A DNA stretch of 64,000 nt from Podaxis mareebaensis (taxonomy: Eukaryota > Basidiomycota > Agaricomycetes > Agaricales > Agaricaceae). A program made the position numbers and the translations under genes. Location of the stretch: NCBI GenBank assembly GCA_018524725.1, contig JAEUWP010000034.1, positions 1 through 64,000 of the forward strand, written 5' to 3'. Shown here one piece after another: positions 6,223 through 29,826 of this stretch. The first letter of the stretch is position 1. The number at the start of each line of letters is the position of its first letter. The notes under the pieces are model-generated. The model was given only the letters and a program-made list of their open reading frames with translations. It searched no databases and was not told the DNA's origin.

Positions 6223-6463
6223 TGTAAAGCTTTATGCTTTATGGTTGGAAGACCTCATGCTCATGCCAAATAGTTCAAACCCATATATTGGGAGACTACA
6301 TGGCACAAGCAAAGGTCAGTTGTCCCCAACAACTGAAGTGCCCTAATAAACAGTAGCTACAAATATGTGACAGAGTGATGGGTAAACAAGAATGGTAGCA
6401 AAATATAACACAGCAACATGGGTTAATTGATTTTTGAATTAAGTGTAAGGGTGCACCCTTACA
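6223..6463 (-). repeat. 3' LTR of element B (241 bp)
   Basis: Ends TGTAAAGC ... CCCTTACA on the plus strand. The terminal 20 bp (6,444-6,463) form the perfect palindrome TGTAAGGGTGCACCCTTACA. By eye it differs from the 5' LTR at 14 positions, twelve of which are TG/CA dinucleotide swaps. Confidence 0.93.
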
Positions 6464-6500
6464 CACCTCCCCTCCAGACCATTTTACGGTCTCTTGGTGT
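6464..6500 (-). promoter_or_regulatory. Polypurine tract of element B with adjacent hairpin
   Basis: Read on the minus strand the sequence is ggtctggaggggaggtg directly before the 3' LTR, a typical polypurine tract. It overlaps the hairpin AGACC/GGTCT (plus strand 6,477-6,493). The same hairpin next to the tract occurs in element C at 23,483-23,500. Confidence 0.7.
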
Positions 6501-7135
6501 GAGAGAGGAGAGGATTAATAAATAGTTGTGTATGATAGGGTATAGGTCTGAGACAAATGAGATGCTCGGTTTTAGGGTATAGGGTATATGGCCGAGATGA
6601 CTAGGTCACTTGGATATAGTTTTAATAAGTGGTGAGGCCAAAGGGGTAAAGCCCCTTGGCCAGGTGTACAGGAAGTTGAGTTGTGAGACTTGACTGTGAT
6701 AGGGGCCAGGCAGTGATGCCTGGGAGAGGATATGAGTGGAATCAAGTCATGAGACTTGATGAGGGTAGTTACACAGTGGAGTGACTAGGTCACTCCCCTG
6801 TCACCAATAGAAAGTTAGGCAGGGGGTAATGAAATTCCCCCAGCCCTGGGTGTGGAGCTATTTGACAATGCAATATCGTCATCGGAGGCATTGGTGGGTG
6901 ATGACTTGCTTTCGGGATGAAGAATGGAGGGGTGATCAACCTCCATCAGTCAGGCTTCAGTCAAGGGGTGATCCTTGACCTGTGCCTCACTGGATGTGAC
7001 AGGCAGAGTCAAATTGCTGGGCCCATCAACTGCAGGTGTGGTTGGGGGCTTGAGCAGGTGTGGGGGGGTACTCCTGCTTGCTTAGAAGGTGGAAGTGAGT
7101 GCGGCCCCCAGCCTTTAGCCAGCTGGGGTCATCTT
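6501..7135 (-). pseudogene. Element B ORF 3, C-terminal remnant and 3' untranslated region
   Basis: On the minus strand from 7,135 downwards the translation QDDPSWLKAGG...THFHLLSK matches element C near 22,785, and further on VKDHPLTEA, LMEVDHP, ASDDDIALSNSSTP and AGGISLPPA match the C-terminus of C ORF 3 that ends at 23,110. TGA stops interrupt it. Many short hairpins are visible: GGAGTGAC-tag-GTCACTCC near 6,780, TCAAGTC-atga-GACTTGA near 6,750, GTCAAGG-ggtgat-CCTTGAC near 6,960. Confidence 0.75.
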
Positions 7136-7140
7136 GCATT

Positions 7141-8508
7141 TGTTAGGTTGGTCCTTATCACTGGTCACCTAAGCTTTGCTAGGGGGCAGCTATCTCACTA
7201 GATGGTTCACAGAGGCACTAGGATCTAGCAAGAAGGATCATGATAAGAAGGTGGCGAGGCAAGTGTCCAGTTAAGTACACTCAGGAGGTCAAACGTCTAT
7301 AAGTCGAGAATATGACCGATAGAATGTTTACTACCACACTGATCGTGAGCTAATGTCAATCCAGAGATTAAGCGAGAGCAATATTCTGAGATTTAAGAAT
7401 ATAGGAAGCTTGCGCTTCCAGTACATGAGCAGCTATTTAAGCTTTACTTCTAAGGTCCTAATTGGGCAACTATGACGAAGTAATGCTGCGAGTCCGAGAA
7501 TCAATAAAAGCATAACTATGGAGCGGAACGAGACAAGAATAGACCAAGGCAGGAATAGGAACTGAGACAAGAAGGGAAACTAACTACTAAGGAAATCGTA
7601 CAAGGCAGAGTTCAGGCGGGATACAGGAATACAAGGCGAAGTGTCTGTAGCAAGATAGGAAGGAAGCTATTTACTGGTTATATTACAAGTCCATATCGGG
7701 GTGAAGGCATCCATTAGAAGAGTCAGATGAGTAGGAGTCAGGAGATGAGGCGGAACTGGGAATAGGGAAGTTGCCAGTCAAAGGCAACGAGTCAGGAGAA
7801 TCTTCATGGAGGAAGATGAGGCTGCGGTGCGGGGACGATGATGACAATGACGATATATCGCCAGTGACATATGGTGGTGGATATGGAGGAGGATCACCAA
7901 TGGGTTCTTCTGGGTTTGACTCGTCAATACCTGGAACGTTGGAGTCAATGCTGCAGAGGGGTGGAAGCTGAGTATGACAGGGAGGGATGGCCGGAGGTTC
8001 GTCGGAGTTAGGGTCGACACGGTAGACTTCTACTTCTCGAAAGTAGAATCCATGGGCAACTTCGTATTTGATAATATGCGGAACGACCTCGGGCGGATAC
8101 ATCATGTAGGGGTGGAGGAATATGATAGGTTCTCTGGCGTAAGGGATCATCTTCCAACCGTGGGCCCAGGCGGAGTCGAAGTTGTTGTGGATCGTTTGAA
8201 TGTATAACCCATTGGGGTCAAAGACGTGGGTGAAGGGAGCATTCTCCCAAGCGATGCGTAATATTTCTGTCATCATGCGATCAGTCTCGTAGAATAGTGG
8301 TCCAGGTGTTGGCCAGTCTTCGGAGAATAGGGATGCGTGGCCAGGAAGGCGATGGTTGGCAAAAGCTTCATTGTGGTAGTGAGTTGAATCTCCAGCTGGT
8401 ATACCTGTATCTTGAGTGGTGGAACGGGAGGCATTTGGAAGTCCAAGCTCGTGGACTAAAGCATGATAAATGATGTTGCGGTGGGGGGTACCAGGCTGGT
8501 TCATAACA
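7141..8508 (-). mobile_element. LTR-like insertion (1,368 bp) inside element B
   Basis: Sister element C reads straight through aaggaaatgcaagatgac, whereas B is split at aaatgc by 1,368 bp. The insert is flanked by gcatt on both sides (7,136-7,140 and 8,509-8,513), a 5-bp TSD, and has TGTTA/TAACA ends. On the minus strand a TATA-like ttaaatag lies well downstream of an internal ORF. Sequence style differs from B: CpG is frequent and hairpins are rare. Best reading: a solo LTR or a small non-autonomous LTR element of another family. No internal LTR pair was seen. Confidence 0.8.
7683..8504 (-). CDS. Uncharacterised protein encoded inside the LTR-like insert
   Basis: A 273-codon open frame that begins with MNQPGTPHRN within 5 bp of the insert's end (the frame is open a few codons further up in element B sequence). 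The N-terminal two thirds look globular (His/Trp/Tyr-rich, e.g. WAHGWKMIPYAREPIIFLHP). The C-terminal third is acidic, Ser/Pro-rich and contains two adjacent PPPY motifs (GDPPPYPPPYVTGD). PPxY motifs bind WW domains and act as late-budding motifs in retroviral Gag; that link is only an analogy. I do not recognise the family. No internal stop, in contrast to all surrounding frames. Confidence 0.6.
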   Translation of the reverse strand: MNQPGTPHRNIIYHALVHELGLPNASRSTTQDTGIPAGDSTHYHNEAFANHRLPGHASLFSEDWPTPGPLFYETDRMMTEILRIAWENAPFTHVFDPNGLYIQTIHNNFDSAWAHGWKMIPYAREPIIFLHPYMMYPPEVVPHIIKYEVAHGFYFREVEVYRVDPNSDEPPAIPPCHTQLPPLCSIDSNVPGIDESNPEEPIGDPPPYPPPYVTGDISSLSSSSPHRSLIFLHEDSPDSLPLTGNFPIPSSASSPDSYSSDSSNGCLHPDMDL

Positions 8509-11255
8509 GCATTTCCTTCCCAGTATGAAGAAATTCTCATTGTTCAAAGAAATACGACCTGAGAAGGTCATGCTCATTGGGGTAGAACCATCTGTCCCAT
8601 CTCTTGATGGCTGGAGGTGGTCCATATAGGTCAAGATGATGGATGCATTCGTCATCCCAGTCATGATACATGGACTGGTGACTAGGTTCACCAGTATAGG
8701 ATTGATCCAAGTAATGGATCCCAAAGAGGTAAGCATGGTCAACCCAGGACGGGTCGACTCCATTGTGGATGAGAACCTCGGTGATGGTGTCAAGGTTCAT
8801 GTTTGGCACTTGACTATCATCAATGTCAAGCAATCGGAAATAACATGTTGGTCCCAGTTGTGGGACAAAGGGGCATTCAGGATGCCAAGCATTCCAATGC
8901 TTGATATATTCTCTATAAAGTCGCAGTGATGCAACTAGGACAGCAAAGAGCTGGGTGAAATCTCACCTGGCCAGCACAATTGGGGCCACACTCAGGTGGC
9001 CCAAAGAAGTGAGCTAGGCCATACCCGAAAGTGGTTTGATGGTGTATGAGCTGTCTATGCTCGAACAGGATACCATTGATGGGGTTGTTGGACCCCAGAT
9101 GGCTATGGGTAAGAAGATATTGACCAAGATGGTCGATATTGAATAGGCCAGCTCCTGTGGGCTGGGTGAAACCCATGCCCTGGGTCCAGTTTTTGGGGTT
9201 TGATATGCGAGCTTGTTCATATGCTCACGACAGTTGGTGCTCTTCCCTTATCTCAGTGGTTATTCCAGATGGATGTGTGTCTGGGCAGAAGCCACTATGG
9301 CACAACAGGAAGATCATTGCATCATCATAGTGCTCCTCCTCCATGTGCTGAGCTATTTTGTAGAGCTCAGTCAGGAGGTGGTGTGCCTCAGCTCAATGCT
9401 CGGCTTTGGCATGATGATTATTGAGAAGCTTGATCAGCTTCTCTACTTTGCAGGGGGTCATAGGCAGTCCACAATGGGCTGCCTTATAAACTGGATGAGT
9501 GGCTGGGATTTTGAACTCCTGGCCTTTGTATTCCGTCATTGCAGCAATGGTGGTGGTGGCTCTGGTGAACACAGTATTGGTTCATCACAAGTAATGAACT
9601 CGCCGCAACAACATGTTCCACATGCTGTTGTTGCATTTGCGACTACAGACTTGGCTGTGTTGCCATAGTCCCCACATGGACAGAATAATGCCATTACGAC
9701 CTGGCAGGTCATGGATAATTGGTCGAGATGTTGACCTAGAGGTCAATGATTGAGGGGCCTTCTTCTTACCCTTCTTGGGTTTGAAGTCTTCAGCTGTGTC
9801 TTCTTCCTCACTGGAGGACATGGGGGTCATGTCCTCAGGTGTGAGGTAGTCAGGGACAACTCGAGGAGCATCCTCGAGTTTGGTGGGGAGATGGACCAGA
9901 ATGAGTGGTCTGTAGTTGCATGTGGGGGAGGTGGGACCTGGAATCCCAGGTCCTGACAGTAGTTCTTCAATACACGACAACTGCTCAGAAGCAGCCATCG
10001 GCAGGAGTGGGGTGTCATCCATTGGGACATCATCATAGATGAGCATGACATCTGCTTCTTGGGTGACTGACTCATCAGTCATCCTGACAGGTGAATCCTG
10101 TCGCCTTCACTTGGATGACTTTTTGACAGGTGTTGGTTCTTGACTAGTGCTAGGTGCACTAGTCTTGGAGGAGGTTGTGGTTAGGTGAGTGCTGGGAGCA
10201 CTCACCTTCTTGGAGGTGGCAGGTGGTAGCTTGGTTTGCATACCTGCCTTTGAGGATGAGGATGATGAGCGAGCACTGCTGGTGCTCGCTTTGGAAGATG
10301 TAGATGATGTGCAAGTCATTGCATTACTCACAGCTGAAGCATATGATTTAGGTCGAGCTGATGAGCTCAACACAGGTTGTTGTTGCTGTTGTAGTGGAGC
10401 TGGGGTGGCTCCACTGGGAGGTGTTAGAGAACCAGATAGGGTCCTCTTTTTTGACACATGAATCATGGCCTGGAGCTCATACTCTCTCAATTGCTGTAAA
10501 GCAGAGAGTGTATTGTTGAGGTGGCAGAGGCATCCTTCAAGGACACTGATGTGTGTGTTTTTGTTTTGTATAATCTCAATGAGCTCATTGAGAACTTGAT
10601 TGATCGACTCGTCAAATGGGTTGATCATGTCAATGAGGTGGTCATTTAACCTGACCTCCCATAATTGAGATACAAGGCCCAAGTTCTGTTCCTTGTATTG
10701 CTGTTGGAGCAAGTCTTGCTCCGATGTGCATTGTTTGCCTTTGGCTCTTGATGGCCCAGATGTTGTCGAAGGTGTGGGGTGAGGTAGTTGCCGAGTGTAT
10801 TCACTCAGCACAGTTGGGTAGTGATGGTGATGGGCCAACTGGAGTGCAGTTGGTGGTGGCAGTGATGCATGGTAGGGGTGGTAAGGCATTGTCATTGGAT
10901 GATGGAGCATCAGCAGTGGTGGAGGGTAGTATGCAGGGTTTGGGTAACCCTGTGGGTATGGATTGAATGGAGGGTGGCTGAATTGTTGACTCAGTCATTG
11001 CTCAAATTGTGGGTGTTGAGACATCAATGTTGGTATCATCGACAGTAAGGCATGATGAGGGTCTTGGTGCCCTTGCTGATGCTCAGGCTGACTCATAAAC
11101 ATTGGGATGGGGTCTGAAGTTGTGTCCATCGACTCCCTCCCCCTCCCAGGACCTGTCCAGGGTCCTTGGAATGTTGATGGTGCAGAGCCACTTGTGCTGC
11201 TCTGCTGAGGCATGGTGGTTGGTTGTTGTGGTTGTTGTGGGTGCTGGGGGTCCAT
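8509..11255 (-). pseudogene. Element B ORF 3 (post-pol protein), N-terminal and central part
   Basis: Starts MDPQHPQQPQQP at 11,255, 128 bp past the pol stop. Domains in order: Pro/Gln-rich N-terminus with Tyr-Pro repeats (YPQGYPNPAYYPPP), a helical coiled-coil-like segment (LLQQQYKEQNLGLVSQL ... INQVLNELIEIIQNKN), a Ser/Ala-rich basic linker ending KKSSK, an acidic stretch (SSSEEEDTAEDF) with KPKKGKKKAP, then a conserved C-terminal region (NIDHLGQYLLTH, FEHRQLIHHQTTF, NMNLDTITEVLIHNG, DQSYTGEP). TGA stops and one frame shift (near 8,900) break it; it is cut at 8,509 by the insert. Homologous along its length to C ORF 3. Function unknown. Confidence 0.75.
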
Positions 11256-11382
11256 GGTGGTGGTTGTAGGGAGAGAAGAGGTGACCTTTGCAAGTCACCA
11301 TTGGTAATATATTGTAGGATTCTCAGGGTTGAAGTTAATCTCTTCAACCTGATTTGTACCTACCATTTCTGGTAGGCTGTGA

Positions 11383-12645: not shown

Positions 12646-12650
12646 GTGTC
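12646..12650. repeat. Target-site duplication of element C, left copy (gtgtc)
   Basis: gtgtc lies left of the LTR start TGTAAGGG at 12,651 and again at 23,762-23,766 after the other LTR. Removing C and one gtgtc joins the element B integrase sequence GHLGNQ without loss. Confidence 0.94.
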
Positions 12651-12900
12651 TGTAAGGGTATCCCCTTGCACAAGAATAAAATCAATTAACCCATATGCTA
12701 CCATTAAGTACTCTGATGACTCATTCCCTTCATGTTTATCCATCACCCCATCATTGTTTGTGTACAATATGTAATTAGGGCACTTCGGCTGTCCCAGGAG
12801 GACAACTGACTTTAGCTTGTGCCATGTAGTCCCAATATACAGGTTTAAACTACTTGGTGTGAGCGTGAAGTCAACTTACAGTAAAGCAACTGGCTTTACA
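12651..12900 (+). repeat. 5' LTR of element C (250 bp)
   Basis: TGTAAGGGTATCC ... GGCTTTACA. About eleven differences from the 3' LTR at 23,512-23,761, most of them CpG-type (for example ccatgtag against ccacatag, tatacagg against tatatggg). Both ends are near-palindromic: TGTAAGGG/CCCTTGCA at the start and GTAAAGC/GCTTTAC at the end. Confidence 0.94.
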
Positions 12901-12968
12901 TTTTTTTAGTTTACTGAGTGGACTACTGCATGAGTAAATGACTTAAACCACACAGATGCTACTGACAC

Positions 12969-15726
12969 ATGGCATCTGAAATGACAATGCCTAATAAACT
13001 TCGACATGATAATGCATTGGAACTGTCCCATAGTGGCAGCAGCCATATAGAAAGCAATGGAGGAAAGGGAAATTACCCTCACTCCAGGTTATTCAAGCTA
13101 GAACCTACCAACAATAGTCAGCAAAATGAGGAGTCCCCAGCTGCTGGGTCTAGCACCACAACTGGTAATAATACACAAGTCTTATCCCCAATCCAAGAAG
13201 TGGCTGAGCCACCTCTAACACTTGATAGGGCACCCTCACCTGAAGTGAACAGCATGCCTCTGAGTGACTTGTATACACTCAAAGAAAGAATTTCCTTCAT
13301 CTTCAATGTGAATCATGTCAAAAGCCCTGTAAGAAGGGCAGAATTATGATTCCACACAGAAGAATTTACCACTGAGCTATTTAAAGCCTTGATGGATATG
13401 CCAATGGATCCTACATTGGAGATTTATAAGAATCTCCTATGTAAGACCATTAAACGACTCGCTTCACTGTATAAAGCAGCAAAACAACAGAAAGGGGAGC
13501 AGCCAGAAACTCCCATGAACGAAATATATTGAGCAATGCCCACTGCTCGATCCAGGAAACAAATAGATGAAACCAGTAATGACCACCAATATAATCCTCT
13601 TGCAAGTGTGGAATCCCCATCTGCTACATCACAGACAATGGCCCCAAATAATACTCCCAACAAGGGCAAAGCACCAGCCAGAGACTTGGACAAACCAACC
13701 CCCTCAGAGTTGAGTATCCTAACATACTCGACCCAACAGGCTTTGGACGAACTGTTTGCCCTTCGAAAGGCTGGAGAAACAGATGATGAATACTCCTGTC
13801 ACCTTGAGAGCCAGACACAAGTTCTAACCATGCTCAATAGAGTGATACCCAATGTATCTATTGCTCAACCGAAGCCCATACAGAGTCTAGCAAAATACTC
13901 TGTCAAAATTGACCCTGACTTGAACAAAGTCGAGGAGGACAAGAAAACTAATGCAGGCCCCTCCAAAACTAATGTTGGATGTGCCAAATACTGGAGTGAT
14001 AGAGTAGCACTCCAGCGAATGCAGAATGAGGACCTCTGACTGTTTGGACAGTTGAAGATTATCAACCAAGGCATATGCTTTATAGGGACAACCCCCATAG
14101 ATGGAGATACCCTCAAAGATGATGATTTAAGATGAGGAGCATTACATCCATGTCAATTGTTGTCACAGCTGTCTATGATACCACCCACGACACCATGAGG
14201 GGCAACAGCAATTACCCCTCCAACACACCCTCCTAGGATACCTCGACCACTGACTGGTCAAGGGACCTTGCAGGAAGAAGATGACATTGAAGAAGAGGAG
14301 GAGGTGTATTGCCCCTCCCAAAAGACCTAGGCAAGGATACTCCCTTGTCAGAAACATGCTGCCAACTTTTGGGTCCCCAGGAGTTGTAAACACCATTCGC
14401 AATCATACTCAACTGATGCATGAACAGTTGAGTGCAACCATTCGAGAATATCTCTTGCAACCCTTCAAATTCCCAGAAGGGTACAGGCCCAGAAACAGGA
14501 AACCCCCCACTGAGAAAGGCCTGGAGCCTTACAGTGGAAGTCCAAGGTTTAGTGACCTCAAAAACTTCGTATCTGCACTATGCCTAGACCTTGCATTAAA
14601 AGGTCTAGGTGGGATGGATCATGCAAGGGATAGGCTATGCCTGTACACCTTACCATACCATTTAGCTGGCAAAGCCAAATGAATGATCGTCTGGCACATT
14701 ATAAATGTCAATCAAACTAAATTCGATTGGACCTTCAAGGAAGTGATCCTTGCATTATATGATTGCTTCATATTACCCACTTCCATGCACGAAGCAAGGG
14801 AAGGACTCAAACGGGTCCAATACAACCCTCGCATTGGAGTACAAGGGTACTATGACACTATAATGGATAATGCACAGTGTATGACTGTGCACCCTGACAA
14901 TTATACCCTCATTGAGCTATTCCTGGAAGGAATACCTGAGGACATGAGGACAGACCTATTGTTTAATCGAGGTCTATCCCCTGAAGTGAACTCGCTAGAT
15001 GAGTTCCTTGCCTACACAGTCTCATATGAAAGTCAATGGAAATTGACATCATATTATCGTCAAGCCCTTCGACTGAACACTAGGGGAGTAGAGCCCTTAA
15101 TGCATAATAACTGCCCAGTGCCTATTCAAGATCAACCCAAAACTCAAACAGCATTTGTTCCCAAGAAGATAGCAAATGGATGAAAACAGATTCATATTCA
15201 AGAAATTCAGCCTTTCTCAAATAGCTATCAATTCAAACAACCCCAACCAGAGAACAGGTCAGGTAGTCACCCTGAACAACAGTGATCTGAGAAACCACAG
15301 GATTGCAATATGAAGAAAACTAGCAACACAGTGAAATGCTATTGCTGTGGCAGCAATCATTATGCAAACTCGGATAAATGTCCGTTGAAGGGGAAGCCTT
15401 CGCAAATCCGAGCCGCTCATACCGCTCTACCTGAAGACAGTATGTCTCACATCGAGAAGGAAGATGACGAGCAGGCTGAAGATTTTCAGCCTGAATATGC
15501 AGGAGACGAGTATGATGTTGACAAAAACCATTCATCAATGCATACTTCCAAGGATGAGTATGCCGAAGTAACCATCATCAAATCTGATTATGGGTCAGAT
15601 AACAAAGAGATGAACCTCTTCACAGCAATCGATGATACTGACATAGTGAGTGAATTGACAGCACTTACAGACTACCCTGGAGATGACAAGCATCAGGAAC
15701 AACGGGTCCGAAAAATAACTCTTTGA
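12969..15726 (+). pseudogene. Element C gag
   Basis: Translation starts MASEMTMPNKLRHDN at 12,969. Conserved with element B (29,503 down to 26,816). Recognisable parts: N-terminal Ser-rich region, a helical segment (LYTLKERISFIFNVNH), a central capsid-like region (FPEGYRPRNRKPP ... LTSYYRQALRLN) and near 15,340 a variant zinc knuckle CYCCGSNHYANSDKC (CX2CX3HX6C), then an acidic tail. In-frame TGA at 13,348, 13,533, 14,037, 14,680 and 15,181 and a frame shift between about 14,040 and 14,280. In B the first two sites read CGA. Confidence 0.85.
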
Positions 15727-16797
15727 ACCAACAAGGGAAAAATCTTATGACTGCAGGTTGCTCTGAACGAGAAACAGTGTCTCACCTCATTTGTCAGCAT
15801 TAATGGCATCAAAGCCTGGACACTTTGGGACTCTGGGAGTACTACCTCTGGGGTGACCCTGGCCTTTGCCCAGATCACCGACATCAAAGTCAGTGAACTG
15901 GTAGACCCTCACATGCTCCAACTGGGCACAGTTGGTAGCAGATCTACTGTGAAGTACGGCACGACCACTGAATTGGCAGTTGGCCCAGTAAAAACCTCAT
16001 CTTACCTTGACATAGCGAACTTTGACTGCTATGACATGATTATTGGAACTCCCTTTATGCACCAACATAAGGTTAAACTCGATTTCGAAAATCGAGTTGT
16101 TATCATTGATGGAGTCAGCATACCAGCCATTGATATCCTCAGTAACTCTGATGCTCGGCTCCACTGTCATTGCATGACTGATAAATATCAGTCAACATGA
16201 CTATATGGTAGCAAGGGAACTACAGAAAAACGAGTGATGGTAGAAGACATCACCAAGGAGAGTGGCAAGCACATTAGGGAAATGCTTCCTCACAACTGCC
16301 GCCATGTAGTTGAGGAGATCCCCTCAACAATAAAGAATGATGACAAAGGAGAAAAACTCCTTTGACCATGATATGCAAATGGACCGAAGTTCCACCCAAT
16401 TGTCTCCATCGAAGATGAGCTCCTGACTCATCAAAAATGACTCCTAGACCCACCTGTCATCAACACCATGTACAATTGGTACTACGACCCTTGGATGCCG
16501 GATGAATGGAATGCCATGGTATCAGGCATCTGGGCTATGAAGTGACCAGCAGATGAATACTTGATGTCTACAGGGTATACTCCCAGTAACCTGGATGATG
16601 TAGTTCATGCAGAGGAGTTTACTAGGATATGATAGCCTAAGAAACACCTCAGGGAATACATCTGTAGCATGACAGTCATGCACTTACTGATGGAGGATGA
16701 CTGTATGAAAAGAATTGAGGACACATGTGCTTGATTCAAACAGAGGAGACCAGCTGAAGATCCCAACTGGTGTAACATACTGCAGATCAAACAGCAA
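15727..16797 (+). pseudogene. Element C pol: aspartic protease and linker to RT
   Basis: The retropepsin active site appears as KAWTLWDSGST near 15,825, with the flap/dimer region further on (NFDCYDMIIGTPFMHQHKVKLDFENR) containing the ILG-like IIGTPF motif. Same frame as the second half of gag and as RT, so gag-pol may have been one frame or the original shift is hidden. Between 16,200 and 16,797 the frame is broken by several TGA codons but still aligns to element B (26,278-25,600, minus). Confidence 0.82.
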
Positions 16798-18282
16798 TTG
16801 TTACACAACTATAATGACATGATGCAGGGGACACCACCCCACCTGCCTCCTTTCCAAGAAGTGAATCATGAGATTCACATTATTGATGAAAGCAAGCAGT
16901 ATAATTATCGCTTGCCTTGCTGCCCTCAGTCATTATGGGAGGAGTTTCATGAGAAACTCAACTGTTACGTCGATGTGGGATGGTGGGAACCCCACAATGT
17001 AGTACAAGCAGTGCCTCTGCTTTGCATACCCAAAAAGGATGGACAACTGTGTACAGTCATTGATGCAAAAGAGCGAAATGATAATACTGTAAAGGACGTA
17101 ACACCTTTACCTGATCAGGAAGTGATCTGTGAAGATGTAGCTAGAGCAAAGTACCACTCTAAGATCAATTTGGCTGATGCATATGAACAGGTCAGAGTTC
17201 GACCTGAGGATGTGGGGAAGATGGCATTTTCCACCATCACAGGAACATACATCAGCAATATTATGCAACAAGGAGATTGTAATGCACCTGCCACATTCCA
17301 AAGATTGATGACAGCTATATTTAGGGACATCATTGGCATGTTTGTCCATGCATACCTGGATGATATATTCATATTTTTGAATTCTGTGGAGGAACATGAG
17401 CAGCATATACGGCTCATATTAAACCGACTCTGCCAACAACAGCTCTATGTCAAAGAATCAAAGGTAGAATTGTATGCTGACCAAGTGGAGTGCCTTGGTC
17501 ATGTAATAGATGATAATGGTATTCACCCCAATACCAATAAACTGTCCCAGATTCACGAGTGGAGGATTCCTCACAATTATAATGATGTGCAGAAATTCAT
17601 TGGCCTTGTCAACTATGTGTCCAACTTTCTACCAGATGTAACTGTTTATACTGGCCTGTTAATGGCCATAACACAGAATGGAACACCATTCCACTGGCAA
17701 CCATTACACCAGAGATGCTTTGATATGATCAAGTGTATCTGTTGTAAAATGCCTGTGATCCAACTGATATAACCAAAGAACAGAGAACCCATATGGGTTA
17801 TCTGTGATGCTTTGAAAACTGGGGTAGGCACCATGTATGGACAAGGCCCCAGCTGGGTAGACTGTCGCCCAGCAGGATTCATGTCCAAAAAGTTTTCTGC
17901 AGCACAGCAGAACTATGCTGTGCACAAACTTGAGACATTGGCTATCCTCGAAGCACTACTGAAGTGGGAGGATAAGTTGGTGGGTTATCGAATCCACATT
18001 ATCACTGACCATAAAGCACTTGAGTTTTTCAAAACTCAATTGAAATTGTCAAGCCAACAGTGGCAATGGCTCAACTACATGTCAAGGTTCAACTTTGACA
18101 TAACCTATGTTAAAGGAGAATGCAACAAAATCGCCAACTGCCTCTCACGATACTATGAGAGTGATCGACCTGGGGAAGAGCATCCCATTGGGGAATATGT
18201 ACAAGCTGACTTTTGCATCGACCCCGAAGGAGATGACTTGCCAGTACCAAGACAAGCAGAGATACAATCCCTGCAAGACTGA
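16798..18282 (+). pseudogene. Element C pol: reverse transcriptase and RNase H
   Basis: RT motifs in order: VPLLCIPKKDGQLCTVIDAK, KINLADAYEQVRV, the palm motif FVHAYLDDIFIF (YLDD) near 17,355, ECLGHVIDDNG and the connection. Tether and RNase H follow: WVICDALKTG (first Asp), ETLAILEALLKW (Glu), IITDHKALEFF (Asp), FDITYVKGECNKIANCLSR (last acidic/Asn region). One TAA at 17,770 separates RT from RNase H (IQLI-stop-PKNREP). Clearly of the Ty3/Metaviridae type. Element B has the same order on the minus strand. Confidence 0.9.
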
Positions 18283-19983
18283 CTGGCAGCCATAGATAAT
18301 GGAGGAGTCAGGCGAAGTGCCAGGCTTCAAGAAAAGCGTGAACAACGAGAAATTGAAGCTGAAGAGCTTCAAGAGGCAGCTGCCCACCATGCTGTAGAAC
18401 CTGATATTGGCCGAGCGAAATGCTCAGCTCAAAAATGCAAGACCAAGGAAGTAACTCTTGGTGAATCGCTCACTACAACTGGCAGCACTGCCAGCCTCAT
18501 CATTGGAGATGACTTCATTGACAAAGTCATTGCCAGCTATAACTCAGACTCACTAATGAGTATAGTCAAACAATCCCCAGAGAAGTATAGGGACTTCTCT
18601 GTAGATAACCAAGGAGTGATCATGAAGAAAACTCCCCTAGGAGACCAAGTCACATGCATCCCAAATGACAGACAACTCATAACCCAGGTATTGATGAAGG
18701 CCCACAAAATTGTGGGACACCTAGGTGACCAGCAAATGGCAGAGTACATTCGCAGATGGTACTGGTGGCCCTCATTGGTAAAAGATTGTCACAAGTTTTG
18801 CAGAACTTGTGAAACATGTGCTCAAACCAAGACATCGAACACAAAACCCAGTGGAGAGTTACACTCTCTACCAGTCCCTATCAAACCCTGGGACTCAATT
18901 GGGATGGACTTCATCAGCCCATTCCCAGAATCCAAAGGCTTTAACTACCTATGGGTGGTCATGTGCCAAATGACAAGCATGGTGCACCTAATACCAGTGC
19001 ATACTAGAATGACAGCATTGGAACTGTCATGGATATACATATGGGATATCATATGTTTGCACAGCCTACTGAGCTCGATTGTAAGCAACTGAGACTCAAA
19101 GTTCACATCCACCTGGTGGAGAGAACTCCACAAGCTACTAGGAGCCAAGCTCCTAATGTCGACATCCTTCCACCCACAGATGGATGGTCAAACTGAGTGA
19201 ATGAATCACAATATTGGGCAGATCTTCCATGCAACAGTACACCACGACCAAACCAACTGGGTCAATAAGGCACCACTAATGGAATTCACGATCAACTTGA
19301 GCATTTTGTCAACCACGAAATACGCTCCTTTCAAACTAAACTACAGGTATATGCTGTCCATGATATAGGACAGCTGTAATGCTGAAACTGTCCACAAAGG
19401 GGTAAAAACCTTTGTGGAGGCAGCTTTGCTAAATTTAGCAGCAGTGCATGATGCAATTATAGAATTGCGGGTCTTCCAAACCCACAATGCAAACAAGAGG
19501 TGAGGACCAGAACCTTGCATTGAGAAAGGAGACTTAGTCTACCTTTCCACACAGAACCTTGCGTTACCAAAAGATAGAGCCTGAAAGCTCTGTCCAAAGT
19601 TTATAGGACCCTACAGAGTCCTAGAATCGAAGCCAGAGACTTCCAATTATACATTGGAATTACCCCCTGCATTAATATGCCAGAAGATTCACCCAGTATT
19701 CCACATAAACCTCCTGAGACCATACCATGCCTCAGATGATGCATTATTTCTGGAGTGATCACAGCCCAAGCCGTACAACTTTGGGTTCGATGATGAACAT
19801 GAATGGTTCATCAACAAGATCATTGGCCATCAGTTTAACAACAATGGCAGGATCGAATTCCAGGTTTGGTGGAGTATGGGCAACACCACTTGGGAACCCC
19901 TACAACACTGTGAAGAACTTGCAGTGTTGGATAGGTATCTGGAGCTGCAGGGGGTGTCAAAGGTCCAACACCTTCGATTCTGA
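18283..19983 (+). pseudogene. Element C pol: integrase with chromodomain
   Basis: HHCC region (HKIVGHLGDQQ ... CHKFCRTCETCAQ) near 18,700-18,830, core GMDFISPFPES (first Asp). The second catalytic site is lost: SSIVSN-stop-DSKF, where B has SSIVSD. HPQMDGQTE is followed by TGA where Arg is expected. Then KFIGPYRVLES, HPVFHINLLRPYH and a chromodomain HEWFINKIIGHQF ... FQVWWSMGNTTWEP. Stop TGA at 19,981, shared with B. Inactive integrase. Confidence 0.9.
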
Positions 19984-20110
19984 TCACAGCCTACCAGAAA
20001 TGGTAGGCACAAATTGGGTCAAAGAGATTAACTTCAACCCTGAGAATCTCATAATATATTACCAATGGCAACTTCTGCAGGTCGCCTTTTCTCTTCCTCC
20101 AACCACCACC

Positions 20111-23110
20111 ATGAACCCCCAACACCTGCAGCAACCACAACAACCACCAACCAATATGCCTCAGCAGAGCAGCACAAGTGGCTCTACACCAACACCCACA
20201 TTTCAAGGACCCTTGACAGGTCCTGGGAGGGGGAGGGAGCTGATGGACATGACCTCAGACCCCATTCCAATGTTCATGAGCCATTCTGAACACCAGCAAG
20301 GATCCCAGGACCCTCATTGCACACTATTGTTGATGATACCAACATCGATGCATCCACAACCCCAATTCGAACAGTGGCCGAATCAACAATTCAGCCACCC
20401 CCAATTCAATCCCTATCCACAGGGTTATCCAAACCCTGCATACTACCCCCTTCCGCTGCTGACATACCCACAACCATTGGCAATGCTGTTCCATTATCCA
20501 CCACCACCAACTGCACCCCAGCTGGCCCATCACTACCCAAACATGCCAAGTGAATACACTCAACAACTAGCTCTCCCCACACCCTCGACGACACCTGGAT
20601 CATCGAGAGCAAAAGGTAAACAATGCATCTCGGAGCAAGATCTGCTCCAACAACAATATGAGGAACAGAGTTCAGACCTCATATCCCAATTACAGGAGGC
20701 TGGTCTGAATGACCACCTCATTGACACAATTGACCCATTTGACAAGTCAATCAACCAAGTTCTTATTGAACTTGTTGAAATAATACAAAACAAAAATGCA
20801 CACATCAGCATCCTCAAAGGATGCCTTCAATGCCTCAATGATACTCTCACGACCTTGCAACAATCATGAGAGTATGAACTTGAGTCCATGGTCTGTGCAT
20901 CAAAAAAGAGAGCCCTGTCCAGCTCTCTAACACCTCCTAGTGGAGCTGCCATGGCTCCACTACAACCACAACAACCTACATCGAGCTCATCAGCTCGACC
21001 AAGATCATACACATCAGCTGCAAGTACCCTGATGACTCGCACTGCATCTACATCCTCATCTAAGACTAAGCAACTTCCTACCACCTCTAAGAAGGCAAGT
21101 GCCCCAAGCACTCACTCAAATACAACTTCATCAAAGACTAGTGTGATTAACACTAGTCAAGACACATCATCCAAGAAGTCATCTAAATGAAGACAACAAG
21201 ACTCTCCTGTAAGGATGACCGACAAGTCGGTCACCTTGGAACCAGATGTCACCCTTACCTATGATGATGTCCTGATGGATGATGCCCTGCTCTCCCCAGT
21301 GACTGCATCTGAGCAGTCACTGCATACTGAAGAACTACCATCAGGACCTGGGATCCCAGGTCCCACCTCCCCTACCTGCAACTACAGACCACTCATCTTG
21401 GTCCATCTTCCCACCAAACTCAAGGATGCTCCTTGAGTTGTTCCTGACTACCTCATGGCTGAGGATGTGACCCCCATGTCCTCTAGCAATGAGGAAGATG
21501 CCACTGAAGACTTTAAACCCAAAAAGGGAAAGAAGAAGGCACCCCAACTGTCAACCTCAAGGTTGACATCCTGACCTATCATCCACAACCTACCAGGTTG
21601 TAATGGCATCATCCCACCCATGTGGGGGCTATGGCAACATAGCCAAGTCTGCAGCCATGAACACAACAACAACATGCAGAACATGTTGTCACAATGAGTT
21701 CACTATTCACGGTGAACCAACACTGTGTTCACCAGAGTCACTGCTACCAACACCACAATGGCAGAATATAAGGGCTGGGAGTTTGAAATCCCGACCAACC
21801 ATCCAGTATACAAGGCAGCCCAACGCAGACTGCCTATGACACCCCGAGAAGCAGAGAAGCTGATTAAGCTTCTCAATAATCACCACACCAAAGCTGAACA
21901 CAGAGCTGAGGCATACCACCTCCTGACTGAGCTATACAAGATAGCTCAGTGCACAGAGGAGGAACACCATGACGATGTGATGATCTTCCTGCTGCATCAT
22001 AGTGGCTTCCACCCAGACACTCACCCATCTGGGATCACAACTGAAATCAGGGAAGAACACCAGTTGTTGCAAGTGTACAAACAAGCTTGTGTATCAAATC
22101 CAAGAAACCGGACTCAAGGCATGGGCTTTACCCAACCCACAGGGGCTGGTCTCTTCAATATCGACCAAGATGGTTGATATCTTCTTACTCATAGTCAACC
22201 TGGATCTAATAATCCAGTCAATGGCATCCTGTTTGAGCATAGACAGCTCATACATCATCGAACCACATTCAGGTACAGCCTAGCTCATTTCTTTGGGCCA
22301 CCTGAGCATGGACCTAATCACACCAGCCAGGTGAGATTCACCCAGCTCTCTGCTGTCCTAGTCACATCACCACAACTTTATAGAGAATATATTGAGTATT
22401 GGAACACTCGACATCCTGAATGCCCCTTTGTCCCACAACCAGGACCAACATGCTATTTTCGATCACTTGACATTGACAATAGTCAAGTGCCAAATATGAA
22501 CCTTGACACCATCACTGAGGTTCTCATCCACAACAGAGTTGACCTGTCCTGGGTCGACCATGCTTACCTCTTCAGGATCCATTACTTGGATCAATCCTAT
22601 ACTGGTGAACCTAGTTACCAGTCCATGTATCATGACTAGGATGATGAATGCATCTGTTGTCTCGACCTATATGGACCACCCCCTGCCATCAAGAGATGGG
22701 ATGGGTGGTTCTACCCCAACAACCACGACCTTCTCAGGTCGTACTTTTTTGAGCAATGTGAGTTCCTTCGTATGGTGAAGGAAATGCAAGATGACCCCAG
22801 CTGGCTTAAAGCAGGGGGCCCTACTCACTTCTGCCTCCTAAGTAAGTGGAAGTACCCATCCCATTTGCTCACACTGACAACTGCCCCAGCAGTTGCCAGC
22901 CCTAGTAGATCAACTCTAATTCCTGTTGTCAGTGAGGCCACTGTCGAGGATCACCCCTCAACTGAAACCCAACTCATGGAGGTGGATCACTCTACCTCTG
23001 ACCACACACTTGACAGAAGAAGATTGTCTACTAATACCAGTGATGACAACATCTCATCATCAAACAAATCAACCCCTAAGGCTGGAGGGAGCTCACTACC
23101 TCTGGCCTAA
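20111..23110 (+). pseudogene. Element C ORF 3: long post-pol reading frame (about 1,000 codons)
   Basis: A single frame from MNPQHLQQPQQP at 20,111 to a TAA at 23,108, interrupted by about nine stops, eight of them TGA (20,867, 21,188, 21,434, 21,572, 21,695 and 21,707, 22,175 and one more region) and one TAG (22,637, where B has TGG). Order: Pro/Gln/Tyr-rich region, coiled-coil-like segment (LLQQQYEEQSSDLISQLQEAG ...), Ser/Thr-rich basic linker, acidic stretch (SSNEEDATEDF), then a region conserved with B (WEFEIPTNHPVYKAA, PREAEKLIKLLNNHH, EVLIHNRVDLSWVDH, RWDGWFYPNNHDLLRSYFFEQ). No similarity to known envelope or enzyme motifs that I can recognise. No signal peptide or membrane segment. Confidence 0.75.
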
Positions 23111-23479
23111 AAATCCCTATTATTCGACAATGGAGTGACCTTACATTGCTCCATCAAAACTATCATGAATCCTGAGCCTCACTGCTCAAATCGTCTTGTC
23201 AAACACTGGTCAGGCTTCACAGTCTGACCCCAATATCTGGCTGAGTCTAATGACAAGGCCCCACCTGTGACCAGCTGAGGAACACCTATTACCTCGGCTC
23301 CAATACCATACTATGGACCGAGCGACCTAGTCATCTCAGTCTCAACATCACTTGACTAGCTGAGCGACCCAGTTGTCTCAGCCCTATACCCAGCACATAC
23401 AACTGAGCTGTCTAGCTGTCTCAGTCATATACCCATTCCTTTTATTATTCCATTAATTTATTAATCCTCCTTCAACTCT
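23111..23479 (+). other. Element C 3' untranslated region
   Basis: No reading frame I would support. Continues from the TAA of ORF 3 to the hairpin and polypurine tract. Contains repeated phrases such as gagcgac / gagctgtc followed by cagtctcagtcatat, and short inverted repeats like those in the rest of the element. Confidence 0.6.
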
Positions 23480-23511
23480 ACGAGACCATGTAATGGTCTG
23501 GAGGGGGGGTG
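23480..23511 (+). promoter_or_regulatory. Polypurine tract of element C with adjacent hairpin
   Basis: AGACCAT-gta-ATGGTCT stem-loop at 23,483-23,500 is followed at once by ggagggggggtg and the LTR. Homologous arrangement in B (6,464-6,500). Confidence 0.75.
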
Positions 23512-23761
23512 TGTAAGGGTATCCCCTTGCACAAGAATAAAATCAATTAACCCATATGCTACCATTAAGTACTCCGGCAACTCATTCCCTTCATGTTCAT
23601 CCATCACCCCATCATTGTTTGTGTACAATATGTAATTAGGGCACTTCGGCTGTCCCACGAGGACAACTGACTTTAGCTTGTGCCACATAGTCCCAATATA
23701 TGGGTTTAAACTACTTGGTGTGAGTGTGAAGTCAACTTACAGTAAAGCAACTGGCTTTACA
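23512..23761 (+). repeat. 3' LTR of element C (250 bp)
   Basis: TGTAAGGGTATCC ... GGCTTTACA, same ends as the 5' LTR, followed by the TSD gtgtc at 23,762-23,766. Confidence 0.94.
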
Positions 23762-26700: not shown

Positions 26701-26811
26701 TGATGCTGTTAATGCTGATATATGATGTGAGACATTGCTTCTCGCAAGGGGCAATCTGTGGGCATAATATCTTCCCTTTGTTGGTTCGAAGAGTGACTCT
26801 TTGAACCCATT
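23762..26811 (-). pseudogene. Element B pol: protease, RT, RNase H
   Basis: Minus-strand counterpart of C 15,727-18,720. Seen: DSGSMTSGMTPTFAQ (protease) near 26,680, RT with LADAYEQVRV and VHVYLDDIFIFSN near 25,130, RNase H ITNHKALEFF (Asp changed to Asn) near 24,470 and a spacer to the integrase zinc region, ending AHKIVGH at 23,762 where element C was inserted. Numerous stops, mainly TGA. The RT segment MARARYHSKIDLAD (25,345-25,055) is the longest open piece. Confidence 0.87.
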
Positions 26812-29503
26812 GATTTCAAGGCTCATCTTCCTTGGGGTAATCAGTGAGTGCATTTATTTCACTCTCTGCAGGAGTATCATCAATACTTGTGAGGAAGTTC
26901 ATGTCCTCGCTATCAGACCCATAGTCAGACTCAATGATGGTTACTTTGGCATACCCATCTTCCGAGGCTTGTGTTGACACATGATCTTCGTCAATGTCAT
27001 CCTCCTCTTCTTCATAATCAGGCCAGTCATCTTCTGCCTGATCATTGTCTTTTTCTCCTGTGTGCAATACTCTGTCTTCAGGTATCGCTGTATGAGCTGC
27101 TTGAATCTGTGAGGGTTTACCCTTCAAAGGGCACTTGTCCAAGCTAGCATAATGGTTTCTGCCACAGCGATAACATTTTATGGCATTGGTAGGTTTATTG
27201 GCATTGTGGTCCAGTGGTTTACTGGGCTGCCTCGCACCTTGGTGGTTGCTCGACTTGTAATCCAGTTGAGCTGTTTTGTTTTTTGAGTCATGTGAGAGTT
27301 GCTGTAACTCTTGAATGTGCATTTGCTTTCACCCATTCACTACCTTTTTGGGTACAAATGCCATTCAAGATCTAGATTGCTCTCGAATCAGTACTGGGCA
27401 ATTATTATGCATCAGGGGATCTACTCCCCTGTTATTCAGATGAAGAGCCTGCTGGTAGTATGACATCAGTTTCCATTGGCTTTCATATGAGACCATGTAG
27501 GCGAGGAACTTGTCTAGCAAGTTCGCTTCAGGGGACAGACCTCGATGAAACAGCAGGTCTGTCCTCATGTCCTCAGGTATTCCTTCTAGGAATAACTTGA
27601 TGAGGGTGTAATCATCAGGGTGCACAGTCATGCACTGTGCATTGTCCATGATGGAGTCATAGTATCCCTGTACTCCAATGCGAGGATTATAACAGACTCA
27701 TTTGAGTCCTTCTCTCGCTTCATGCATGGATGTAGGTAGCATGAAGTGATCATACAGAGTGAGGATTGCCTCCTCGAAAGTCCAATCAAACTTGGTTCAA
27801 TTAACATTTATAATGTGCTGAACGATCATTCATTTGGCCTCTCCAGCTAGGTGGTAAGGTAGGGTATACAGGCACAGCCTGTCCCTTGCATGATCCATTC
27901 CACCTAGACCTTTTAATGCAAGGTCTAGGCAGAGTGTGGATACGAAGTTTTTGAGGTCACTAAACCTCGGACTTCCACTGTAAGGCTCCAGGCCTTTCTC
28001 AGTGGGGGGTTTTCCATTTCCAGGCCTGTACCCCTCTGGGAATTCAAAAGGTTGTGAGAGGTACTCTCAGATAGTTGCACTCAATCAATTGTGCATTAGT
28101 CGTGTGTGGTTGCAAATGGTGTTTGCAATGCCTGGGGACCCAAAGGTCAGTGGTGCATCTCTAATGAGGGAATATCCTCACCTTGGTCTTTCAGGGGGTT
28201 GGTATAATTCCTCCCCTTCATCAGATCCTTCCTCTTGATGACATCCACAACTGGTCGGTGGTCATGGTACTGCTCCTCTTAGTGCAGCTGCATGAGCCAT
28301 GGGTGGTGGTAACAATGGTCGTTGAGGATGCAAGGCTCCTTGCCTTAGGTCATTATCATCCAAGACATCCCCGTCTACAGGGGTTGTTCCTATGAACTGG
28401 ATGCCTTGGTCTGGTATTTTCAACCTTCCATATAGTTGAATATCTTCATTCCACATCTGCTGGAGTGCCACTCGATCACTCCAGTATTCTGCACATTCTA
28501 TACTGGGCTTGGATGGCCCAGTTTCAAACCACTTTTCTCTCTCACCTCCACTCAGGTTAAGATCAATTTTAACAGAGTGCTTTTCTGAACTCTGTATAGG
28601 TCTTGGTTGAGCGATAGAGGCATGGGGGATCACCCTATTGAGGGTGGTCAGCACTTGTGTTTGGCTTTCTAGATGACAAGAGTATTTGTTGTCATTTTCA
28701 CCAATCTTTTGAGGGGTGAACAGCTCATCTAAGGCTTGTTGGGTCAAGTATGTTGTGATACTTGACTCTGAAGGGGTTGGTTCTGCAGAGGATGATGTTC
28801 CTCTGATCAGTGCTTTTCCTTTGTCAAGGGTGCCACCAAGTGCCACTGTAGGGTTGGCATCAGATGGTGATTCTACCCATGAAAGAGGGTTGTACAGGTG
28901 CTCATCACCTGTGTTATCCATTTCTTTCCTTGATCGAGCTGTAGGCATGGCTCGATAGATTTCATTCATGGGGGTTTCAGGTCATTCCCCTTTATGTTGC
29001 TTTGCTGCCTTATACAGTGAAGCAAGTCATTTAATTGTTTTACATAGGAGATTCTTATACATCTCCAATGTAGGGTCTATTGGTATATCCATCGAGCTCT
29101 TAAACAGCTCAATGGTATATTCTTCTGCATGGAATCGTAGTTCTGCCCTTCTTACAGGGCTTTCAACATGATTCATGTCGAAAATGAGGGAAATTCTTTC
29201 TTTGAGTGTATATAATTCACTTGATATTGCAGTGTTAAATTCAGGCAATGGTGCCCTGTTGAGTGATGATGGTTGCTCGCTCTCCTCTTCTATTGGTGGC
29301 AGAGTATGTGAATTGCTTCTGGCTGTGGTATTAGATCCCATAGTCAGATTCTCTGTGTTATGTTGACTATTGTCAATGGGTTCTAATTTAAATAGTCTGG
29401 AGTGGGGATAATTTCCCTTTCCTCCATTATTGTCAGTGCAGCTACTGCCACTAGGTAGTGAATCTGATGTGTTATCACATCGAAGCTTGTTGGGCATTGT
29501 CAT
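26812..29503 (-). pseudogene. Element B gag
   Basis: Starts MTMPNKLRCDN at 29,503, 83 bp inside the 5' LTR. A one-base difference puts the upstream ATG seen in C out of frame. Recognisable: LYTLKERISLIFDMNH, RRAELRFHAEEY (CGA where C has TGA), MNEIYRAMPTARSRK (CGA where C has TGA), FPEGYRPGNGKPP, zinc knuckle CYRCGRNHYASLDKC near 27,160 and an acidic tail (EEEEDDIDED). Broken by TGA stops and a shift near 28,260. Confidence 0.85.
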
Positions 29504-29585
29504 TCTTGGTTGCCATGTGTATGCAGTGGTTAGATGTTATAGGGTGTTTTGCTCATGCATTAGTCCACTCGGTGAACTAAAAAAA

Positions 29586-29826
29586 TGTAAAGCTTTATGC
29601 TTTACAGTTGGAAGACCTCACGCTCATGCCAAATAGTTCAAACCCATATATTGGGAGACTATGTGGCACAAGCAAAGGTCAGTTGTCCCCAACAACTGAA
29701 GTGCCCTAATAAACAGTAGCTACAAATATGTGATGGAGTGATGGGTAAACAAGAATGGTAGCAAAATATAACACAGTGACATGGGTTAATTGATTTTTGA
29801 ATTAAATGTAAGGGCATGCCCTTACA
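29586..29826 (-). repeat. 5' LTR of element B (241 bp)
   Basis: Plus-strand ends TGTAAAGC and CCCTTACA. Palindrome TGTAAGGGCATGCCCTTACA at 29,807-29,826 and stem TGTAAAGC-tttat-GCTTTACA at 29,586-29,606. The TSD acacc follows at 29,827. Confidence 0.93.

What the first reader, a model, noticed from the sequence alone, without database searches (positions are those of the whole stretch)
6223..29826. A Ty3 retroelement family (B, C, L) saturated with short perfect inverted repeats
Across coding, untranslated and LTR sequence of B and C, stem-loops with perfect arms of 7-10 bp and loops under 10 nt recur every few dozen bases. In 21,210-21,601 alone I count six: TGACCGAC/GTCGGTCA (21,216), CAGTGACTGC/GCAGTCACTG (21,297), GGACCTGGGA/TCCCAGGTCC (21,344), AACTCAAGGA/TCCTTGAGTT (21,417), TGTCAACCT/AGGTTGACA (21,549), ACAACCT/AGGTTGT (21,585). 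Others: CCTAGACCTT/AAGGTCTAGG (14,583 and in B 27,903), TTGAGTTTT/AAAACTCAA (18,020), TCACAAGTT/AACTTGTGA (18,789 and B 12,554), TCTCAATGAGCTCATTGAGA in B near 10,570. A rough chance expectation for 8-bp arms with loops up to 10 is about 0.07 per 390 bp. Elements A, F, H, I and the LINEs do not show this. Possible roles: RNA structure for packaging or priming, template switching by RT that perfects palindromes, or avoidance or provocation of silencing.
Basis: partly seen in the sequence, partly recalled or inferred. Interest (0 to 1): 0.88.

Follow-up and report, generated by a model that had tools for sequence, protein, structure and literature searches.

The report
Retrotransposon lineage built of RNA hairpins
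A group of virus-like jumping genes in a fungus-like genome carries a short, perfect hairpin about every 100 bases, even inside its genes, and its RNA is predicted to fold as strongly as that of small RNA phages, apparently kept so by natural selection, which is unusual for this kind of element.

Summary
In detail: all twelve quoted hairpins are present. B and C hold 72 hairpins (arms >=8 bp, loops <=10 nt) in 23.6 kb, 3.0/kb, against 0.3/kb in the rest of the window; dinucleotide shuffles give about a fifteenth, and so do synonymous-codon shuffles of a well-preserved copy. It is a lineage trait: the 18 copies examined of this Ty3 (probably chromovirus) family, and a sister family with about 62% identical reverse transcriptase, share it; six other Ty3 pieces and host DNA do not. 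In the RT region the sister families place nearly all hairpins differently. Predicted folding excess (MFED 27-33% in three well-preserved sequences) matches phages MS2 and Qbeta. Stems evolve slowly, loops do not; inherited pair-breaking changes are depleted. I read this as genome-scale ordered RNA structure kept by purifying selection through synonymous sites. Loop inversions (three clear, one ambiguous) show that template switching happens at these hairpins, but the one-arm clustering and paired-change excess expected if it made them were not found. CpG decay mimics covariation; it was excluded in the column tests, not in the rate test. The use (Gag binding, compaction, avoiding sense-antisense pairing) is inferred only.

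The parts
6223..29826 (-). Element B: Ty3-type LTR retrotransposon copy, split by C (parts 6223-12650 and 23767-29826; 5-bp target duplicate at 23762-23766); hairpin-rich
   Evidence: LTR pair 6223-6467 / 29586-29831 94% identical; duplicated ACACC at 6218-6222 and 29827-29831; 44 hairpins with arms >=8 in its two parts
12651..23761 (+). Element C: same family, nested in B; hairpin-rich, CpG-depleted
   Evidence: LTR pair 94.9% identical; duplicated GTGTC at 12646-12650 and 23762-23766; 28 hairpins with arms >=8; MFED 20% sense, 14% antisense
16735..17772 (+). reverse transcriptase piece of C
   Evidence: PF00078 E 1.5e-23
17773..18282 (+). RNase H piece of C
   Evidence: PF17917 E 8.6e-24
18283..19092 (+). 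integrase zinc-binding piece of C
   Evidence: PF17921 E 3.2e-16
21210..21601 (+). cluster of six perfect hairpins in 392 bp (region behind pol)
   Evidence: 18 matches to this stretch in the genome
19475..19477 (+). 3-nt loop seen inverted between copies (TCC in 12 rows, GGA in one)
21104..21106 (+). 3-nt loop seen inverted between copies (CCC in 13 rows, GGG in one; C and two others have CCA)
22168..22170 (+). 3-nt loop seen inverted between copies (TCT in 13 rows, AGA in three including C, CCT in one)
61050..61400 (-). LTR region of the sister family (family II), 5 hairpins with arms >=7
   Evidence: 40 matches listed of 89 candidates in the genome, several near family II reverse transcriptases

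Best explanation
B and C belong to a lineage of Ty3-type, probably chromovirus, LTR retrotransposons whose genomic RNA is under purifying selection to fold into dense, local, short stem-loops (mostly 6-10 bp stems, 3-6 nt loops, about one stem of at least 7 bp per 100 nt), spread over coding, untranslated and LTR sequence. Stems are formed mainly through synonymous positions, so proteins are conserved. What is kept is the density, not particular hairpins, which in the RT region are nearly all different between two sister families. It works like the genome-scale ordered RNA structure of some RNA viruses and like the folded genomes of RNA phages. Shown by computation: density, folding excess, stem constraint, turnover. 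Inferred: that the RNA rather than single-stranded cDNA is what matters, and the use. The most likely uses are many weak Gag-binding or compacting hairpins for an 11-kb genome, or keeping sense RNA folded so that it does not pair with antisense RNA and feed RNA interference. Loop inversions are by-products of template switching at the longest stems.
For: Density about 15-fold over dinucleotide shuffles and 12- to 20-fold over synonymous-codon shuffles in nine segments. Trait in the 18 family I copies examined, some pieces lower, in 3 of 3 family II RT pieces and in family II LTR loci; six other Ty3 RT pieces have 4 helices >=7 and none >=8 in 7.4 kb. MFED sense/antisense: L017 33/22%, family II RT L049 28/19% and L048 29/18%, C 20/14%; MS2 28/24%, Qbeta 32/34%; other Ty3 -4/-2%, one host piece -1/0%. 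Stem lengths fall much more slowly than chance: 26, 27, 22, 12, 1, 1 helices of 6 to 11 bp in L017 (loops 3-8) against 7.0, 2.0, 0.4, 0.15, 0, 0. Loops peak at 4-5 nt. Arms change less than matched segments (0.13-0.15 against 0.20 differences per site in five comparisons, 0.03 against 0.09 in one); loops do not. Inherited pair-breaking states outside CpG, per column: GT 0.032 against 0.078, AC 0.022 against 0.120, transversions 0.007 against 0.101. Family II LTR: 0 of 69 columns with an inherited break, about 0.165 per column in controls. Between families, arms differ at codon position 3 (0.65 against 0.59 outside) and about equally at positions 1-2. Phase pairing third with third positions rare: 14 of 134 against 29% in shuffles.
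Against: No excess of paired (compensatory) changes once CpG columns are removed: 23 of 351 variable columns against 215 of 3216 in controls. Tolerance of G-U over A-C on the sense strand is weak: odds ratios 1.24-2.58 over eight settings, p 0.03 at best, seven not below 0.05; singletons in the family II LTR test go the other way (0 GT, 5 AC). Sense above antisense in MFED also holds for two LINE stretches (8/6%, 7/4%) and MS2, so it is weak evidence. Loop energies show no clear strand preference. Predicted G-U use is low in the sense strand, and the antisense strand is the more stable one in raw energy. The column test keeps helices perfect in at least 4 rows, which by itself lowers shared breaks, so its size is inflated. 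The rate test does not exclude CpG columns and drops hairpins with private changes. The rows share ancestry and, in five of six rate comparisons, the same partner (C). No RNA was probed; no other species could be read at DNA level.
Confidence: 0.57

Rival explanations
1. Template switching makes and repairs the hairpins. During reverse transcription (or host replication) the new strand copies one arm from the other, turning near-palindromes into perfect ones; protein selection removes the harmful cases. The hairpins would then be a by-product, as considered for coding palindromes in hairworm mitochondria.
For: Loop inversions flush with 10-11 bp arms: CCC/GGG, GGA/TCC, AGA/TCT in family I; AAA/TTT in family II, which is ambiguous because it is also a plain complement. 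With >=3 differences and a transversion, 14 reverse-complement segments (two overlap others) against 0 reversed and 4 complemented, three of the latter being segments also in the first list. The AGA/TCT loop is flipped in copies of both identity groups (no tree was built). Arms are Watson-Crick perfect, GT and AC mismatches nearly equal in well-preserved copies. Third-third phase depletion as in hairworms. Stems of 10-12 bp exist, more often in family II.
Against: One-arm clustering is not beyond background by much: gains 9 of 10 one-armed, of which 7 hold an adjacent CA or TG (CpG decay), losses 19 of 27, background 67% for two differences; family I against II no asymmetry (1.69 and 0.73 against 1.48 for pseudo-arms). 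No excess of paired changes and a reduced arm rate, where conversion predicts the reverse. One-mismatch stems are also enriched. Nine of the 14 inverted segments have no flanking arms. In yeast, ordinary genes show the same loop inversions at 10-11 bp arms, so inversion needs no special element. All-transition loop flips (TGTG/CACA) may be CpG decay.
Confidence: 0.27
2. Selection acts on hairpins in DNA (single-stranded cDNA or the integrated copy: cruciforms, protein sites), not on the RNA.
For: No clear strand preference of loop energies; near-equal GT and AC mismatches.
Against: MS2, PP7 and Qbeta, true RNA genomes, show the same near-equality, so that test does not speak against RNA. Folding excess is higher on the sense strand in 4 of 4 element sequences (weak, see above). 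Loops are mostly 3-6 nt, 87 of 575 with 0-2 nt (arms >=8, loops <=10, all fetched pieces and B), not what duplex-binding sites need.
Confidence: 0.1
3. An artefact of composition, repeats or CpG decay.
For: CpG decay does mimic covariation and one-arm changes.
Against: Dinucleotide and synonymous-codon shuffles; the copy with CpG intact (L017, observed/expected 0.97) is among the richest.
Confidence: 0.02

Closest known systems
Genome-scale ordered RNA structure (GORS) of positive-strand RNA viruses (PMC3695492, passages and one section read)
   Same: Folding energy excess spread over the genome, beyond discrete elements; varies between close relatives; kept beside protein coding
   Different: Here in an LTR retrotransposon; MFED 27-33% in three well-preserved sequences against 9.1% and 3.9% in the two norovirus regions of that paper (shuffling methods may differ); made of short, perfect, local hairpins
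Leviviruses MS2, PP7, Qbeta (sequences L052-L054)
   Same: Similar MFED (MS2, Qbeta), local hairpins, GT and AC mismatches near-equal
   Different: Perfect hairpins are denser here (>=7 bp: 112 against 5.0 expected in 16.8 kb; three phages 28 against 3.6 in 11.3 kb); different replication
Coding palindromes in Nematomorpha mitochondria (PMC6649704, abstract, passages and discussion read)
   Same: Perfect inverted repeats in coding sequence, gained and lost between species, third-third phase avoided
   Different: Arms here up to about 12 bp (there up to 284 bp); imperfect stems are also in excess here
Template switching at inverted repeats in yeast genes (PMC8604942, abstract and one section read)
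   Same: Inversion of 3-nt loops between 10-11 bp arms, recurrent
   Different: There ten inversion events in ordinary genes; no genome-wide hairpin excess mentioned in what I read
Yeast Ty3 and Ty1 genomic RNA (PMC11381356, abstract and passages read)
   Same: Structured LTR-retrotransposon RNA
   Different: There stable structured regions are up to 30% of the RNA; no saturation by short perfect hairpins mentioned in the passages read
miRNA-like secondary structures in maize genes and transposable elements (PMC10760457, abstract and start of introduction seen)
   Same: Local folding reported as common in most transposon superfamilies, linked to small RNAs
   Different: Structures there are defined by likeness to pre-miRNAs and seen in most superfamilies; here one Ty3 lineage stands out from others in the same genome

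Membership tests
Ty3/Gypsy LTR retrotransposon | Order protease - RT - RNase H - integrase | tested here: met
   L017: PF08284, PF00078, PF17917, PF17921/PF00665 in that order; C: RT, RNase H, integrase zinc binding
Ty3/Gypsy LTR retrotransposon | Two LTRs and a short target-site duplication | tested here: met
   LTR pairs, 5-bp duplications of B and C
Chromovirus branch | Chromodomain behind integrase | tested here: inconclusive
   PF00385 E 1e-4, 22.6 bits, below the cut-off of 25.1
Genome-scale ordered RNA structure | Folding energy excess along the genome over order-shuffled controls | tested here: met
   98% of 49 fragments of L017 (9.0 of about 11.1 kb) and 69% of 61 fragments of C at z < -2
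Genome-scale ordered RNA structure | Constraint on paired positions | tested here: met
   paired changes not in excess
Genome-scale ordered RNA structure | Fitness effect of disrupting it | not testable with these tools
   needs an experiment
Template-switch palindromes | Spacer inversion | tested here: met
Template-switch palindromes | Arm homogenisation: clustered one-arm changes or excess paired changes | tested here: not met
   few events (10 gains)
Nematomorpha-type coding palindromes | Long arms (tens to hundreds of bp) and no excess of imperfect repeats | tested here: not met

The most novel reading that the evidence does not exclude
An LTR retrotransposon lineage, with RT relatives in mushroom-forming and wood-rotting fungi, has turned its whole genomic RNA into an RNA-phage-like chain of short hairpins, selected as a distributed property with turnover of individual hairpins, either as many Gag-binding sites or as a shield against sense-antisense pairing and RNA interference.
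Probability: 0.45. Interest if true: 0.85.

Novelty: new variant of a known kind. Interest (0 to 1): 0.72.

Why it matters
Genome-wide selected RNA structure is discussed for RNA viruses. Term searches of the open-paper library (listings of at most 20 titles with the start of each abstract) showed no report of it for an LTR retrotransposon; papers outside that library and those terms were not seen. Local folding in transposons as such is known (maize, yeast Ty1 and Ty3). If true, structured and unstructured Ty3 elements sit side by side in one genome, so the cause and use of such structure can be tested against host silencing and packaging. The turnover of hairpins at constant density also separates selection for 'being folded' from selection for particular motifs.

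Tried and rejected
Equal GT and AC mismatches as proof against RNA structure: dropped after three RNA phages gave the same result. One-arm clustering as proof of template switching: 7 of 10 gains hold adjacent CA or TG, as CpG decay gives. Covariation (232 paired changes in the raw count; 3-fold over independence): at control level when CpG columns are removed and distinct columns counted. Hairpins overriding conserved residues: arms match conserved residues in 44 of 46 against 178 of 200 outside, p 0.27, no cost seen. Relatives in viral contigs: no match. Spacing of hairpins: slightly regular, coefficient 0.67 against 0.78, 5% of random placements as regular; not used. A sharp stop of stem length at 9 bp, which I had noted from L017, did not hold on recount: pooled family I pieces have 438, 317, 160, 78, 22, 5 helices of 7 to 12 bp, and family II has many of 10-12. 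For that reason I lowered the best explanation from 0.60 to 0.57 and raised template switching from 0.25 to 0.27.

Scripts that failed: one search stopped before its comparison, and one search did it by pairs of copies; one search stopped at an N in PP7, after six of its twelve sets, and was redone in part; one search stopped on a print error and was redone; one search stopped after its first result and was redone; one search stopped after the first of two reference loci, so the family II column test rests on one reference (9 rows).
Full report
What was checked. B (6223-29826, minus strand) is a Ty3-type element with LTRs 94% identical, split by C (12651-23761, plus strand, LTRs 94.9% identical); both have 5-bp target duplications. 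C encodes RT, RNase H and integrase pieces. A better-preserved relative (L017) shows protease, RT, RNase H, integrase and a chromodomain match just below its cut-off, and a further reading region of about 3 kb behind pol without a convincing Pfam match (one weak Prominin match, 17.1 bits against a cut-off of 34.3).

More than chance. With arms >=8 and loops <=10 nt, B and C hold 72 hairpins in 23.6 kb against 12 in the other 40.4 kb. Thirty dinucleotide shuffles per segment gave means of 1.2-2.4 where 19-28 were seen. Four 10-kb control stretches of the same genome hold 20 helices >=7 and 6 >=8 in 40 kb. Synonymous-codon shuffles, 100 per segment, of six coding segments of L017/L033 and three family II RTs gave means of 0.6-1.6 helices >=7 where 10-21 were seen; two other Ty3 RTs gave 0 and 2 where 0.6 and 1.1 were expected. 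So amino-acid sequence and codon usage do not explain it.

A lineage trait. The genome (G000, 37 Mb, 429 contigs) is probably that of a mushroom-forming or wood-rotting fungus, an inference from the names among its RT relatives. It holds 18 matches to the 392-bp cluster, B and C included; a protein search shows further family members that were not fetched. The 20 pieces fetched from 16 further contigs have 1.4-5.7 hairpins per kb with arms >=8, all but one at 2.85 or more; the 5.7 is a single helix in a 176-bp piece. A sister family with RT identity mostly 56-66% has 13, 17 and 15 helices >=7 in three RT pieces of 1.87 kb, and is also rich in its LTR loci. Six other Ty3 RT pieces (32-35% identity), 7.4 kb, have four helices >=7 and none >=8. 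Between the two families (64% DNA identity in RT) only 1 of 13, 1 of 17 and 1 of 15 family II hairpins has the same centre as a family I hairpin, though some overlap. So in this region density is kept while positions turn over.

CpG decay. Copies range from CpG observed/expected 0.97 (L017) to 0.01 (L010), so most have suffered C-to-T decay at CpG sites. This produces TG/CA pairs that look like compensatory changes and like clustered one-arm changes. Early counts were inflated by it. leave those columns out; one search does not.

Stem constraint. Compared with matched pseudo-hairpins, arms differ less between copies (0.13-0.15 against 0.20 per site for five references against C; 0.03 against 0.09 for C against the best of 12 rows); loops do not, and in the last comparison differ more (0.12 against 0.06). 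Hairpins with a change private to one copy were dropped; 48-79 were kept. Outside CpG columns, states that break a pair and are shared by at least two copies are depleted in hairpin columns (603 columns): GT to 0.41, AC to 0.18, transversions to 0.07 of control. The order fits RNA pairing, but the GT:AC contrast is weak (p 0.03 in the best of eight settings), and requiring the helix in four rows inflates the depletion; with two rows required, GT and AC are equal per column (0.036 each, against 0.078 and 0.120). In family II LTR loci 0 of 69 columns has an inherited break. Paired changes are not in excess.

Folding. Mean folding energy difference in 300-nt fragments (15 dinucleotide shuffles each), sense and antisense: L017 33% and 22%; family II RT L049 28% and 19%, L048 29% and 18%; C 20% and 14%; MS2 28% and 24%; Qbeta 32% and 34%; other Ty3 -4% and -2%; LINE stretches 8% and 6%, 7% and 4%; one host piece about 0. 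B and L047 were not run. The norovirus regions used elsewhere to study such structure had 9.1% and 3.9% (PMC3695492, passages). Sense exceeds antisense in 4 of 4 element sequences, but also in the LINEs and MS2. In raw energy the antisense strand is the more stable one, which fits its G- and T-rich composition; the shuffles take that into account.

Shape. In L017 (loops 3-8), helices of 6, 7, 8, 9, 10 and 11 bp number 26, 27, 22, 12, 1 and 1 against 7.0, 2.0, 0.4, 0.15, 0 and 0 expected. Pooled over all family I pieces (loops 0-10), 547, 438, 317, 160, 78, 22 and 5 helices of 6 to 12 bp; family II LTR loci 73, 29, 24, 31, 18 of 7 to 11 bp (copies are related, so these are not independent). Stems of 6-10 bp are thus common and longer than 12 bp were not seen, but there is no sharp stop. 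Loops peak at 4-5 nt. In coding sequence the phase that pairs third with third codon positions is rare (14 of 134 against 29% in shuffles; the three family II RTs in this count are related). That phase ties first to second positions and leaves least freedom, as described for hairworm mitochondria (PMC6649704).

Template switching. A scan of all pairs of copies for short segments that are reverse complements of each other (>=3 differences, >=1 transversion, identical flanks) gave 14 events, two of them overlapping others, against 0 for plain reversal and 4 for plain complement, three of which are also in the first list. Three of the 14 are exactly the 3-nt loop between 10-11 bp arms; nine have no flanking arms. 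Family II adds one AAA/TTT loop with 11-bp arms, which is also a plain complement. By loop, 7 of 163 family I loci carry an exactly inverted pair (two of them the same LTR hairpin in its two LTRs) against a mean of 1.7 and a maximum of 5 in 200 sets of pseudo-loops; some of the seven are all-transition flips that decay could give. The same kind of inversion is known from ordinary yeast genes (PMC8604942, section read). So template switching happens here, but clear one-arm clustering and excess paired changes, which it predicts if it made the hairpins, are missing.

Conclusion. Selection for dense local RNA hairpins is the best reading (0.57), with template-switch maintenance as the main rival (0.27). 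The biological use is not shown. Closest in behaviour are virus genomes with genome-scale ordered RNA structure and the RNA phages; by genes the elements are Ty3/Gypsy, probably chromoviruses.

Noticed in passing
L017:5022-8261 (about window 19740-22980 in C): A reading region of about 3 kb behind pol, two long frames, no convincing Pfam match; the whole element is about 11.1 kb, long for Ty3 as I recall it.
   Followed up: partly
Family I copies; e.g. L017, L012, L022, L010: CpG observed/expected falls from 0.97 in one copy to 0.01-0.1 in others, with C-to-T singletons most frequent per site at CpG: methylation-linked decay that may roughly order copies by age.
   Followed up: partly
window 12901-12930 and 29556-29585 (minus): Directly inside the 5' LTR lies a run of T (TTTTTTTAGTT...), not an evident tRNA-type primer site; priming may be unusual. 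No tRNA comparison was made.
   Followed up: no
L019:321-660: Repeated perfect palindromes AGTAGAATTCTACT just outside an element copy.
   Followed up: no
window 3994-6222 and 32915-35143: Two LINE-like stretches, 82% identical; folding energy difference mildly raised (7-8%) compared with one host piece (about 0).
   Followed up: partly
window 22168-22170 and relatives: Loop AGA/TCT is flipped in C, C63 and C247, which lie in different identity groups, so the flip may recur.
   Followed up: partly
window 61050-61400: LTR region of the sister family with three hairpins of 9-10 bp arms; 40 scored matches of 89 candidates in the genome.
   Followed up: yes
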